NCBI RefSeq assembly: GCF_022524345.1
Contig: NZ_JAKWJU010000002.1
Location: 5,060,501-5,124,500, forward strand
Reading direction: 5' to 3'
From: Streptomyces marispadix
Lineage (GTDB): Bacteria; Actinomycetota; Actinomycetes; Streptomycetales; Streptomycetaceae
DNA: 64,000 bases
A program made the translations under genes and the position numbers. Below the pieces are notes generated by a model. It made no database searches. It was not told the DNA's origin and worked only from the letters and a program-made list of their open reading frames with translations. Position 1 is the stretch's first letter, and every line of letters starts with the position of its first letter. Positions 3,360 to 22,387 of the stretch are shown piece by piece.

Positions 3360-3431
3360 TGGGCTATGGTGTAATTGGCAGCACGACTGATTCTGGTTCA
3401 GTTAGTCTAGGTTCGAGTCCTGGTAGCCCAG
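3360..3431 (+). tRNA. tRNA-Gln (CTG anticodon)
   Basis: A 72-base cloverleaf: acceptor TGGGCTA pairs with TAGCCCA, the discriminator base is G, and the anticodon loop TTCTGGT has CTG at 3393-3395. The T loop TTCGAGT is canonical. CCA is not encoded. It lies just downstream of gltX. Confidence 0.96.
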
Positions 3432-3480
3432 CGCGATCTTGATTCCGGCGCCGTTCAGAGGCGCAAGTCACAAGATCGAG

Positions 3481-3553
3481 GCCCCCGTTGTGTAGCGGCC
3501 TAGCACGCCGCCCTCTCAAGGCGGTAGCGCCGGTTCGAATCCGGTCGGGGGTA
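3481..3553 (+). tRNA. tRNA-Glu (CTC anticodon), copy 1
   Basis: A 73-base cloverleaf with acceptor GCCCCCG / CGGGGGT and an anticodon stem CCGCC/GGCGG around loop CTCTCAA; the anticodon CTC is at 3515-3517. The T arm is GCCGG-TTCGAAT-CCGGT. CCA is not encoded. Confidence 0.96.
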
Positions 3554-3581
3554 CGGGCCGATCACCGTCGGCCAGGCTGGG

Positions 3582-3654
3582 GCCCCCGTTGTGTAGCGGC
3601 CTAGCACGCCGCCCTCTCAAGGCGGTAGCGCCGGTTCGAATCCGGTCGGGGGTA
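3582..3654 (+). tRNA. tRNA-Glu (CTC anticodon), copy 2
   Basis: Base-for-base identical to the copy starting 101 bases earlier; anticodon CTC at 3616-3618. The two are separated by 28 bases, so this is a recent or gene-converted tandem duplication. Confidence 0.96.
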
Positions 3655-3669
3655 CTCGATCAGGAAAGT

Positions 3670-16917: not shown

Positions 16918-17001
16918 GTAGCCGTAGCCGTAGCCGTAGCCGTAGCCGTAGCCGTAGCCGTAGCCGTAGCCGTAGCCGCAGCCGCAGCCGCAGCCGCAGC
17001 C
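16918..17001. repeat. Perfect hexanucleotide tandem array, 14 units
   Basis: Ten GTAGCC units followed without interruption by four GCAGCC units, 84 bases in all. It lies in the divergent gap between rpmB and the DAK2 gene, 72 bases before the latter's start. A microsatellite of this length should be prone to slippage. Confidence 0.95.
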
Positions 17002-17072
17002 GTCCGTCGTGCTCGTCGCGGACGGGGCCCGTGCAGGCCGTAGACGGGACACAGACCGGAGGAGGTCCTCAC

Positions 17073-19091: not shown

Positions 19092-19174
19092 AACCGCAAG
19101 GACGCGGAACGGAAGCACGCCGGAACCGCAAGGACGCCGGAACCGCAAGGACACCGGAATCGGAAGGACGCCGA
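19092..19174. repeat. Tandem repeat between the DAK2 gene and recG
   Basis: Five units of 16-17 bases related to AACCGCAAGGACGCCGG. It ends about 75 bases before recG and is non-coding. Confidence 0.75.
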
Positions 19175-19249: not shown

Positions 19250-22200
19250 ATGGTGTGCAATGGGCTTGTGTCCGTGACGCTCGACGAATCCCTGAAGAAG
19301 CATCTGGGCGGCAGCACCGCGAAGGTGCTCGCCGAGCACCTCGACCTGCACACGGTCGGCGACCTCCTCCACCACTACCCCCGGCGGTACGAGGAGCGCG
19401 GCCAGCTCACGCGCCTCTCCGACCTCCCGCTGGACGAGCATGTGACGGTCGTCGCGCAGGTCGCCAAGTCCAGGGTGCATACGTACAACCGCGGCAAGGG
19501 GCAGCGCCTGGAGGTCGTTCTCACCGACGGCAGCGGCCAGTTGCAGCTCGTCTTCTTCGGACGGGGCGTCTACGCCCCGCAGAAGGACCTCCAGCCGGGC
19601 ACGCGGGCGATGTTCGCGGGCAAGGTCGGGATCTTCAACGGCCGCCTCCAGCTTGCCCATCCGCAGTACGAGAAGCTCGGCGCCGAAAGCGGAAGCGAGG
19701 ACGTCGACGCCTTCGCCAACAGGCTGATGCCGATCTATCCGGCAGTCGCGCAGATGGCGTCCTGGAAGATCGCCAAGGCGGTCGGCATGGTGCTCGCGTC
19801 GATGGAGGCCACCGGCTGGGACGGACTCGTCGACCCGCTGCCCCCGGCGGTACGGGAGGAGCGGCGGCTGATCACGCTGCCGGAGGCGTTCGAGAAGGTG
19901 CACAGGCCCCGCTCGAAGGCGGACGTCGCGGAGGCACGCGACAGGCTGAAGTGGGACGAGGCGTTCGTCCTCCAAGTCGCCCTCGCCAGGCGCAGGGTGG
20001 CCGAGGCACGGCTGCCCGCCGTCGCCCGCGTCCCCGTCGAAGGCGGCCTGCTGGACGCCTTCGACGCGAAGCTGCCGTTCACCCTCACCGAGGGGCAGCG
20101 CCACGTGAGCCGTGAGATCTTCGACGACCTCGCCGCCGAACACCCCATGCACCGCCTCCTCCAGGGCGAGGTGGGCTCCGGCAAGGCACAGCCGCTGGAC
20201 GCCCTCGTGCTCACCCCGGGCGGCTTCCGCGAGATGGGCCGTATCGAGGTCGGAGACGAGGTGATCACGCCCTCCGGGGAGCGGGCGCCGGTCGACGGAG
20301 TGTTTCCCCAAGGGGAGCGCGACGTCTGGCGGTTGACTCTCTCCGACGGCAGCAGCGTGGAGTGCGACGACGAGCATCTGTGGCTGGCGGGCACCGCCGG
20401 CGCCTGGCGCAGGGGAGAGGCGCCACGGGTGCTGACCACGCGGGAGATCCGTAACGACCTCGCCTCGGCGGGGGGTTCGCCGAAGTGGTGTCTCCCGCAG
20501 GCCGTTCCCGTGGATCTCGGCGCTCCCGCGCAGGCCGAAGGTGATCCGTACGCGACGGGCCGCAGGTGCGGCGGGCCCGGCAGGCACAGCCCTGTCCCGC
20601 GGGAGTGCAAGGAGGACTCCCTCAAGAACCGACTCGCCCTGCTCCAGGGCCTGTTGGACGCCGGTGCGGACGAGGAGCGTGCGCCCCGCGGGGTGGACGC
20701 GGGCGCAGAGGAGGAGCGCCCCGTGGTCTTCCGCTCGGCCTCACGGACCCTTGTGGAGGACGTGGCGTGGCTGGCCCGTTCGCTGGGAGGCCACGCGCGG
20801 ATCACGCCGGAGCGGCGCTCGGAGCCGCCCGTGCGCCCCGGCGGACACCCCGGTGAGCAGGACGCCGCACCGCCCGCCGGGCCTCCCGCCGAGTCACGAG
20901 TCGAGGTGCTGCTGCCCGCCGAGTACGCCCCGTTCCGTTCGCCGAGCCGCACGTCCGGCCGCGCAGGGCAGGCCACGGACCCCGAGTCGCTGCGCCGCCA
21001 TGTGCGGGCGGCCGAACCCGTGGGCCGCAAGCCCGTGCAGTGCATCAGCGTGCGCCACCCCGAACACGCCTATGTCACCGACCACTTCACGGTCACCCAC
21101 AACACCATGGTGGCCACCCGCGCGATGCTCAACGTCGTCGACGGCGGCGGCCAGGCGGCGCTCCTCGCGCCCACCGAGGTACTCGCCCAGCAGCACCACC
21201 GCTCCGTCACGGGCATGATGGGCGAGCTGGCCGAAGGCGGGATGCTCGGCGGCGCGGAGCAGGCCACGAAGGTCGTGCTGCTCACCGGCTCGATGGGTGC
21301 GGCGGCACGCCGCCAGGCCCTGCTGGACCTGGCCACGGGCGAGGCCGGCATCGTCATCGGCACCCACGCGCTCATCGAGGACAAGGTCCGCTTCCACGAC
21401 CTTGGTCTCGTGGTCGTCGACGAGCAGCACCGCTTCGGCGTCGAGCAGCGTGACGCCTTGCGGGGCAAGGGAGTTCAGCCGCCGCATCTGCTGGTGATGA
21501 CGGCCACGCCCATTCCCCGCACCGTCGCCATGACCGTCTTCGGCGACCTGGAGACCTCCGTACTGGACGAGCTTCCGGCGGGCCGTTCGCCCATCGCCAG
21601 CCACGTCGTGCCCGCGAGGGACAAGCCGCACTTCCTCGCCCGCACCTGGGAGCGCGTAAGGGAGGAGACAGAGGCCGGTCACCAGACGTATGTCGTCTGC
21701 CCCCGCATCGGCGACGAGGAGGAGCCCGCGGCGGGCAAGTCCTCCGGCGCCGAGGACGGGGACGACGCGGGGCGACCGCCGCTCTCCGTGCTCGACACGG
21801 TCGCCCGGCTGCGCGAGGGACCGCTGGCGGGGCTGCGCGTCGAGGCGCTGCACGGGCGGATGCAGCCCGACGCCAAGGACGAGGTCATGGGCCGCTTCGC
21901 CCGTGGCGAGGTCGACGTCCTCGTCGCCACGACCGTCGTCGAGGTCGGCGTCGACGTGCCCAACGCCACGGTCATGGTCGTCATGGACGCCGACCGCTTC
22001 GGCGTCTCCCAGCTCCACCAGCTACGCGGACGAGTCGGCCGAGGCTCCGCGGCGGGCCTGTGCCTGCTGGTCACGGAGGCACCGGAGGCGGGCCCGGCAC
22101 GGGCACGGCTGGAGGCCGTGGCGGGCACTCTCGACGGCTTCGAGCTGTCCCGCATCGACCTGGAGCAGCGCCGCGAGGGCGACGTGCTGGGGCAGGCGCA

Positions 22201-22387
22201 GTCGGGGGTCCGTACGTCGCTGAGGATGCTCGCGGTGATCGACGACGAGGAGATCATCGAGGCCGCACGCCAGGCCGCGAACTCCGTGGTCGCCGACGAT
22301 CCGGAGCTGGAGCGGCTGCCCGCACTGCGTACGGCGCTGTCGGCGCTCCTCGACGAGGAGCGCGAGGACTACCTGGACAAGGGCTGA
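19250..22387 (+). CDS. recG: ATP-dependent DNA helicase RecG interrupted by an intein
   Basis: RecG reverses stalled forks and branch-migrates Holliday junctions. The open frame is 1045 codons, some 300 more than normal. The N-terminal wedge/OB part (LHTVGDLLHHYPRRYEERGQL) leads to the Walker A GEVGSGK, where a 306-residue intein (20186-21103) is inserted. The host resumes at TMVATRAML, giving a 739-residue mature protein. Later motifs are intact: VVVDEQHRFG (motif II), MTATPIPRT (motif III), VEVGVDVPNATVMVV, and QLHQLRGRVGRG (motif VI). Because the intein splits the ATP site, the protein should be inactive until spliced. The start may instead be GTG at 19268, six codons later, which has a TGCAAT hexamer just before it. 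Confidence 0.96.
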   Translation: MVCNGLVSVTLDESLKKHLGGSTAKVLAEHLDLHTVGDLLHHYPRRYEERGQLTRLSDLPLDEHVTVVAQVAKSRVHTYNRGKGQRLEVVLTDGSGQLQLVFFGRGVYAPQKDLQPGTRAMFAGKVGIFNGRLQLAHPQYEKLGAESGSEDVDAFANRLMPIYPAVAQMASWKIAKAVGMVLASMEATGWDGLVDPLPPAVREERRLITLPEAFEKVHRPRSKADVAEARDRLKWDEAFVLQVALARRRVAEARLPAVARVPVEGGLLDAFDAKLPFTLTEGQRHVSREIFDDLAAEHPMHRLLQGEVGSGKAQPLDALVLTPGGFREMGRIEVGDEVITPSGERAPVDGVFPQGERDVWRLTLSDGSSVECDDEHLWLAGTAGAWRRGEAPRVLTTREIRNDLASAGGSPKWCLPQAVPVDLGAPAQAEGDPYATGRRCGGPGRHSPVPRECKEDSLKNRLALLQGLLDAGADEERAPRGVDAGAEEERPVVFRSASRTLVEDVAWLARSLGGHARITPERRSEPPVRPGGHPGEQDAAPPAGPPAESRVEVLLPAEYAPFRSPSRTSGRAGQATDPESLRRHVRAAEPVGRKPVQCISVRHPEHAYVTDHFTVTHNTMVATRAMLNVVDGGGQAALLAPTEVLAQQHHRSVTGMMGELAEGGMLGGAEQATKVVLLTGSMGAAARRQALLDLATGEAGIVIGTHALIEDKVRFHDLGLVVVDEQHRFGVEQRDALRGKGVQPPHLLVMTATPIPRTVAMTVFGDLETSVLDELPAGRSPIASHVVPARDKPHFLARTWERVREETEAGHQTYVVCPRIGDEEEPAAGKSSGAEDGDDAGRPPLSVLDTVARLREGPLAGLRVEALHGRMQPDAKDEVMGRFARGEVDVLVATTVVEVGVDVPNATVMVVMDADRFGVSQLHQLRGRVGRGSAAGLCLLVTEAPEAGPARARLEAVAGTLDGFELSRIDLEQRREGDVLGQAQSGVRTSLRMLAVIDDEEIIEAARQAANSVVADDPELERLPALRTALSALLDEEREDYLDKG
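20186..21103 (+). other. Intein in the RecG Walker A motif, class 3 type with decayed endonuclease
   Basis: A 306-residue insert immediately after the Walker A lysine. Residue 1 is Ala, not Cys or Ser, so standard N-terminal acyl shift is impossible. Block B reads SVECDDEHLW, with Trp-66 in the class 3 position. Block F is KPVQCISVRHPEHAYVTDHF with Cys-286, and block G is VTHN with Thr-304, His-305 and Asn-306; the +1 residue of the host is Thr. W, C and T together define class 3 inteins, which start splicing from the block F cysteine. The middle has RLALLQGLLDAGADEE and VFRSASRTLVEDVAWLARSLGGHARI, matching LAGLIDADG endonuclease blocks, but the DTDG core is replaced by DAGA and the second motif is not seen. 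Confidence 0.92.

What the first reader, a model, noticed from the sequence alone, without database searches (positions are those of the whole stretch)
20186..21103. Class 3-type intein inside the Walker A motif of RecG
The sequence directly shows GEVGSGK, then a 306-residue insert, then TMVATRAML. The insert begins with Ala, so it cannot use the usual N-terminal Cys/Ser; it has Trp-66 in block B, Cys-286 in block F and Thr-304 before His-Asn. From the known families this W-C-T pattern defines class 3 inteins, which branch through the block F cysteine and are rare. Insertion right after the P-loop lysine fits the rule that inteins occupy the least changeable site. RecG would be ATP-dead until splicing, so splicing efficiency could gate fork repair.
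Basis: partly seen in the sequence, partly recalled or inferred. Interest (0 to 1): 0.9.

Follow-up and report, generated by a model that had tools for sequence, protein, structure and literature searches.

The report
Self-splicing insert in repair helicase RecG
The repair helicase RecG of this Streptomyces-type bacterium carries a self-splicing protein insert (a class 3 intein) between two residues of its ATP-binding loop, so the enzyme should be able to use ATP only after the insert has cut itself out; the insert is real and well conserved, but of a kind already known.

Summary
Window 20186-21103 encodes 306 residues in one open frame, between GEVGSGK and TMVATRAML of RecG. It is an intein: it hits solved inteins, including class 3 DnaB inteins, and an AlphaFold model matches Hint inteins plus a LAGLIDADG endonuclease. 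No Pfam family hits the insert itself. The class 3 residues (Ala1, Asp61-x-x-His64, Trp66, Cys286, Thr304-His305-Asn306, Thr+1) are kept in 110 of 110 RecG-intein loci read, 97 distinct sequences. The allele sits in 32 of 196 genomes of the window's genus with recG; in the other 164 two searches did not find it. The window's endonuclease looks dead, while the splicing part stays under purifying selection. At E <= 1e-80 the genome has only this recG, so active RecG should depend on splicing. The Lys|Thr P-loop site, the WCT signature and RecG as an intein host are in print: a new member of a known kind. 'Rare' is overstated; splicing as a switch is untested.

The parts
19250..20185 (+). N-extein of RecG (wedge and OB domains, first part of the helicase domain), ending in the Walker A residues GEVGSGK
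20186..21103 (+). class 3 intein, 306 aa (Ala1 to Asn306)
20186..20500 (+). N-terminal splicing (Hint) part, intein residues 1-105, with block A Ala1 and block B C60-D61-D62-E63-H64-L65-W66
   Evidence: the boundary at 105 is the one I chose
20366..20383 (+). block B DDEHLW (residues 61-66): DxxH and the Trp of the WCT triplet
20501..20995 (+). middle part (residues 106-270): decayed LAGLIDADG homing endonuclease; residues 115-252 of the model align with I-DmoI; the motif aspartates are lost and 67 residues of the full-length relative L021 face gaps
20996..21103 (+). C-terminal splicing part (residues 271-306): block F with Cys286, block G with Thr304-His305-Asn306
21041..21043 (+). codon of Cys286, the presumed initiating nucleophile (block F position 4)
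   Evidence: role by homology, PMC5050341 and PMC6195587
21104..22387 (+). C-extein of RecG, starting with Thr+1 (the Walker A threonine), to the stop codon

Best explanation
The insert is a class 3 intein of the RecG Lys|Thr allele, whose homing endonuclease has decayed but whose splicing domain is intact. Shown from sequence: the position, the Hint fold by prediction, all class 3 residues, their conservation, and the endonuclease decay. Inferred from characterised class 3 inteins: Cys286 attacks the Lys(-1)-Ala1 bond to form a block F branched thioester; the N-extein passes to the hydroxyl of Thr+1; Asn306 cyclises with help from His305; an acyl shift leaves GSGKT, a 739-residue RecG. The precursor lacks a contiguous Walker A motif and should not hydrolyse ATP. 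Only this recG was found in the genome, so RecG activity should depend on splicing. The intein is probably kept because its precise loss is unlikely and bad splicing costs RecG, not because it still homes.
Confidence: 0.95

Rival explanations
1. Retained as a conditional switch: precursor RecG accumulates and splices when oxidation, zinc or another stress on Cys286 is relieved, giving a pool of ready RecG after damage.
For: M. smegmatis DnaBi1, a class 3 intein at the DnaB P-loop, is reversibly inhibited by H2O2 (PMC6195587, passages) and by zinc (PMC7360933, passages). Endonuclease-less forms persist in the window's clade.
Against: The redox partner Cys48 of DnaBi1 aligns with Val47 here, Val in 120 of 120 listed homologues. 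Of the window's non-catalytic cysteines only Cys60 is widely conserved; it is Ser or Ala in 3 of 97 distinct inteins and the same place is Cys in the class 1 gp41-1 intein, so it looks structural (inference). Purifying selection is equally expected from the need to splice.
Confidence: 0.12
2. Splicing-defective insert, so that RecG is a two-piece or dead protein.
For: By my motif test 67 of 107 intein-bearing loci have lost the endonuclease motifs, so decay is going on in the family.
Against: Decay spares the splicing residues in 110 of 110 loci and none of the 80 loci has a stop codon inside; extein dN/dS stays about 0.11 for the window.
Confidence: 0.03
3. A class 1 or class 2 intein, or a Hint domain that is not an intein.
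For: Native gp41-1, a class 1 intein, is the second-best sequence hit (6qaz, 3.8e-8).
Against: Residue 1 is Ala, not Cys/Ser, and block F position 4 is Cys with Trp66 and Thr304: the WCT triplet. The best hit, 6riz, is the gp41-1 variant with C1A, F65W, D107C, i.e. with WCT grafted (PMC7664689, passages). Exact Lys|Thr empty sites argue against a non-splicing Hint domain.
Confidence: 0.02

Closest known systems
Class 3 DnaB P-loop inteins (Msm DnaBi1, Mle DnaB, MchDnaB1)
   Same: WCT triplet, no N-terminal nucleophile, Hint fold; DnaBi1 also sits in the P-loop of a helicase, with the P-loop serine as +1
   Different: Msm and Mle forms are 139 and 145 aa mini-inteins (PMC5222942, PMC6195587, passages); this one is 306 aa with an endonuclease remnant and +1 Thr and lacks the Cys48 partner. 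DnaB class 3 inteins of this and two other genomes lie in another clade (the Msm one was not in the tree)
Phage class 3 inteins of the AQPLDSLV type (PhoH, DEAD/ResIII, RecA-like, terminase, Pol III)
   Same: Near-identical start, WCT, THN, and in 19 of 23 viral loci the same GK| junction
   Different: Other host proteins; 14 of 16 measured are 335-362 aa, and Pfam recognises LAGLIDADG_3 in 15 of the 18 proteins scanned
PhoH intein at RGR|T, one of them in the window's own genome
   Same: Class 3 residues, 42% identical over residues 1-133 (PhoH by Pfam 2.3e-90)
   Different: Different site (not Walker A), 360 aa, separate clade 100/100
RecG as a listed intein host
   Same: RecG appears in a table of intein-containing proteins (PMC5874633, passages)
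   Different: The table gives no organism below 'Eubacteria', no site and no class

Membership tests
Intein | In-frame insert whose removal restores a conserved host sequence | tested here: met
Intein | Hint fold | tested here: met
   predicted model; Pfam Hint models do not hit the insert itself
Intein | C-terminal Asn followed by Cys/Ser/Thr | tested here: met
   N306|T in window; 80 of 80 loci without the feature being required
Intein | Self-excision and ligation of the flanks | not testable with these tools
   needs expression
Class 3 intein | No Cys/Ser/Thr at position 1 | tested here: met
   Ala1 in window, 30 of 30 and 80 of 80 (there pattern-biased)
Class 3 intein | Trp at B:12, Cys at F:4, Thr at G:5 (WCT) | tested here: met
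   W66, C286, T304; definition from PMC5050341 (passages)
Class 3 intein | Block B DxxH in place of TxxH | tested here: met
   D61-D-E-H64; reported for DnaBi1 in PMC6195587 (passages)
Class 3 intein | Block F branched intermediate | not testable with these tools
   needs trapping with Asn306Ala
Active LAGLIDADG homing endonuclease | Catalytic Asp in both motifs | tested here: not met
   against L021, the Asp of motif 1 (FGLLLGDG) falls on a gap and motif 2 QGLMDTDG reads QGLLDAGA; which Asp is catalytic is recalled
DnaBi1-type redox switch | Cys at the Cys48 position | tested here: not met
   Val47 at that place

The most novel reading that the evidence does not exclude
RecG splicing is a damage-responsive switch in Streptomyces: an endonuclease-dead class 3 intein, invariant in its catalytic cysteine, holds fork-remodelling RecG in an ATP-dead but possibly DNA-binding form until the cell's redox or metal state allows Cys286 to react. 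In the same genome PhoH and DnaB carry class 3 type inteins too, so one chemistry would control three ATPases.
Probability: 0.1. Interest if true: 0.75.

Novelty: new member of a known kind. Interest (0 to 1): 0.36.

Why it matters
It gives a large allele (full, shrinking and absent copies at one site in one genus) in which the homing cycle, endonuclease decay and selection on splicing can be compared. It may explain why many public records call these proteins 'helicase-related protein' rather than RecG. It offers class 3 inteins with +1 Thr for protein engineering, and a P-loop helicase in which conditional splicing can be tested in a harmless host.

Tried and rejected
Pfam on the insert: 0 families; NCBIfam gave only a weak hit to a replicative helicase model (E 0.0053). 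The idea that Cys60-Cys286 is a conserved redox pair came up because both are Cys in 120 of 120 listed homologues; dropped after Cys60 was found as Ser or Ala in 5 of 110 loci (3 of 97 distinct sequences) and as Cys in class 1 gp41-1; no distance could be measured because model coordinates are not given. G157 showed two RecG matches without an intein hit; its break lies at model position 363, not at the P-loop, so it is not counted. Recent intein transfer: dS(intein) below half of dS(extein) in 4 of 378 pairs of endonuclease-bearing inteins, 0 of 1428 mixed and 0 of 1275 endonuclease-less pairs. These pairs share sequences (among them L137/L144/L151 and L146/L152), so this is at most a few events; the overall medians (1.58-2.34) run the other way, because inteins evolve faster than the exteins. 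The extein tree needs at least 23 changes of intein presence, but its 166 rows were not a random sample, so no rate is drawn from it. Rows dropped: one search kept 168 of 173 loci (L001, a copy of the window, and four with short flanks left out), 166 after removing identical rows; one search used 79 of 81 (L095, L127 left out). The script that fed required AQP after Walker A and HN before the C-extein, so for A1, H and N the free tests are (A1, T, H free; Asn required). Thirteen of the 110 loci repeat the intein sequence of another locus. The label SNF2 given to L212 was my guess; Pfam shows only Helicase_C and LAGLIDADG_3 in that protein. Endonuclease presence was classed by my own motif patterns plus length > 325, not by assay.

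Full report
Observation. The window encodes RecG at 19250-22387 (+), 1045 aa, in one frame. The RecG family model NF008167 matches the two sides (positions 2-319 and 318-744) and skips the middle. The sequence reads GEVGSGK, then 306 residues from 20186 to 21103, then TMVATRAML; without them 739 residues remain. In 62 of 62 intein-free recG loci held, T follows GK directly, so the insert lies exactly between the Walker A lysine and threonine.

Class. PMC5050341 (passages) defines class 3 by the lack of a nucleophile at A1 and by Trp, Cys and Thr at B:12, F:4 and G:5. PMC6195587 (passages) adds a DxxH in block B of DnaBi1. The window has Ala1, D61-x-x-H64, W66, C286 and T304-H305-N306|T. All are kept in the 120 homologues listed, the window's own among them, out of 3168 found (the list is the top of a ranking, and my script required a C-terminal Asn). 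They are kept in 30 of 30 loci, and in 80 of 80 loci read from the tblastn boundaries: 110 loci, 97 distinct sequences. The patterns that fetched the loci (AQPLD.. and VECDDEH) lie in blocks A and B, so for those loci blocks F and G are the unbiased part; the loci were fetched without patterns.

Distribution. In a draw of 199 genomes of the window's genus (window included; taken as Streptomyces because the nearest named RecG, 94% identical, is from Streptomyces sp. HNM0575), recG (E <= 1e-80) was found in 196. It gives two matches in 33; 32 of these are exactly the 32 with a RecG-intein hit (E <= 1.1e-47), 31 of them read at the junction (G018 not). The 33rd, G157, breaks elsewhere. The match tables were cut, so I did not see every row. 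Of the 80 named loci kept (152 found), 77 are Streptomyces and 3 Actinomadura (GDVGAGK|A...N|T). A genome of another family in the same order carries it as well. On a 48-row tree the 17 RecG inteins form one clade (100/98), apart from the DnaB (100/99) and PhoH RGR|T (100/100) inteins.

Decay and selection. Full forms of 338-341 aa carry two LAGLIDADG motifs; Pfam LAGLIDADG_3 hits 22 of 30 aligned members but not the window's. Against the full form L021, the window has a gap at the Asp of motif 1, reads DAGA for DTDG in motif 2, and lacks 67 residues in that region, so it should not home on its own. By motif, 40 of 107 intein-bearing rows keep the endonuclease. Window versus its nearest relative L076: dN/dS 0.109 in the extein, 0.202 in the Hint part, 0.376 in the middle; the same order holds in the other three comparisons of the window and in 10 of 12 pairs overall. 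Signs of recent intein transfer appear only between endonuclease-bearing copies: 4 of 378 pairs against 0 of 1428 mixed and 0 of 1275 without. The pairs are not independent and amount to a few events.

How it works. By homology with studied class 3 inteins (PMC5222942, PMC7664689, PMC6195587; passages), Cys286 attacks the Lys-Ala bond, the N-extein moves to Thr+1, and Asn306 cyclises. None of this was tested here. Because Lys and Thr of Walker A are 306 residues apart in the precursor, ATP hydrolysis should need splicing; PMC6195587 says this was shown for the P-loop RadA intein (passage). The own genome shows one recG at E <= 1e-80, in two halves around the insert.

Is it a switch? DnaBi1 of M. 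smegmatis is inhibited by oxidation through a Cys48-Cys118 bond (passages), but Cys48 aligns with Val47 here. Cys60 is not invariant (94 C, 2 A, 1 S of 97 distinct inteins). A switch acting on Cys286 alone is not excluded.

Wider view. Of 23 viral loci with related inteins, 19 have the intein directly after GK (L160 and L161 look like copies, and so do three of the four exceptions). Of 18 scanned with Pfam, hosts include PhoH (6), DEAD/ResIII (3), DNA polymerase III type (2), RecA (1), Terminase_6N (1) and a PDDEXK_1 nuclease (1, not after GK). The search patterns lay inside the intein, so they did not force the GK. The Lys|Thr site is called a 'classic' P-loop insertion in PMC5050341 (passage), which also cites a proposed phage origin of class 3 inteins. 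The window's genome also has a class 3 type intein in PhoH, and in DnaB a class 3 type plus a second one starting with Cys (PhoH and DnaB confirmed by Pfam).

Novelty. RecG is named as an intein host in PMC5874633 Table 1 (passages). Searches for class 3 intein + RecG, RecG intein, intein + RecG + Streptomyces, inteins + RecG, class 3 intein + Streptomyces, class 3 intein + P-loop, intein + PhoH + RecG, and RecG + intein-containing + helicase + actinobacteria found no description of this allele in the open library; of the five papers I saw passages of two and the listing of three. Subscription papers and intein databases were not searchable, and Tori and Perler 2011, the class 3 survey, was not held. 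Verdict: correct finding, new member of a known kind.

Noticed in passing
L002/L003 (window's own genome, G000:C2 about 1670842-1671921, - strand): Class 3 type intein of 360 aa in PhoH at RGR|T, with both endonuclease motifs apparently present.
   Followed up: partly
L004/L005 (G000:C2 about 3358816-3362712): DnaB of the same genome carries two inteins: a class 3 type at MGK|S and a second one beginning with Cys after ESG.
   Followed up: partly
L162 4914-6131 and L169 4914-6170 (viral contigs): In-frame TGA codons, two in L162 and one in L169; in L162 one is at the Trp of the WCT triplet itself. Under code 4 both inteins are open and complete, which suggests TGA is read as Trp in these phages, so splicing would depend on recoding.
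   Followed up: partly
19092-19173: A 17-bp tandem repeat (4.9 copies) just upstream of recG. With up to 2 mismatches the unit has 14 matches in the genome, 3 of them here, against 1 for the reversed control pattern.
   Followed up: partly
window 16918-17003: A 6-bp repeat, 14.3 copies at 97% match (GTAGCC), just before the 655-aa frame that starts at 17031.
   Followed up: no
L175, L176, L178 (viral contigs): Related class 3 type inteins not at a P-loop; L175 lies in a PDDEXK_1 nuclease, with Thr+1.
   Followed up: no
names of RecG-intein proteins: Many intein-bearing RecG proteins in the list are named 'helicase-related protein' or 'DEAD/DEAH box helicase', possibly because the insert upsets the naming models.
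   Followed up: no
window 3360-3655: Three tRNA genes in a row: Gln(ctg), Glu(ctc), Glu(ctc).
   Followed up: no
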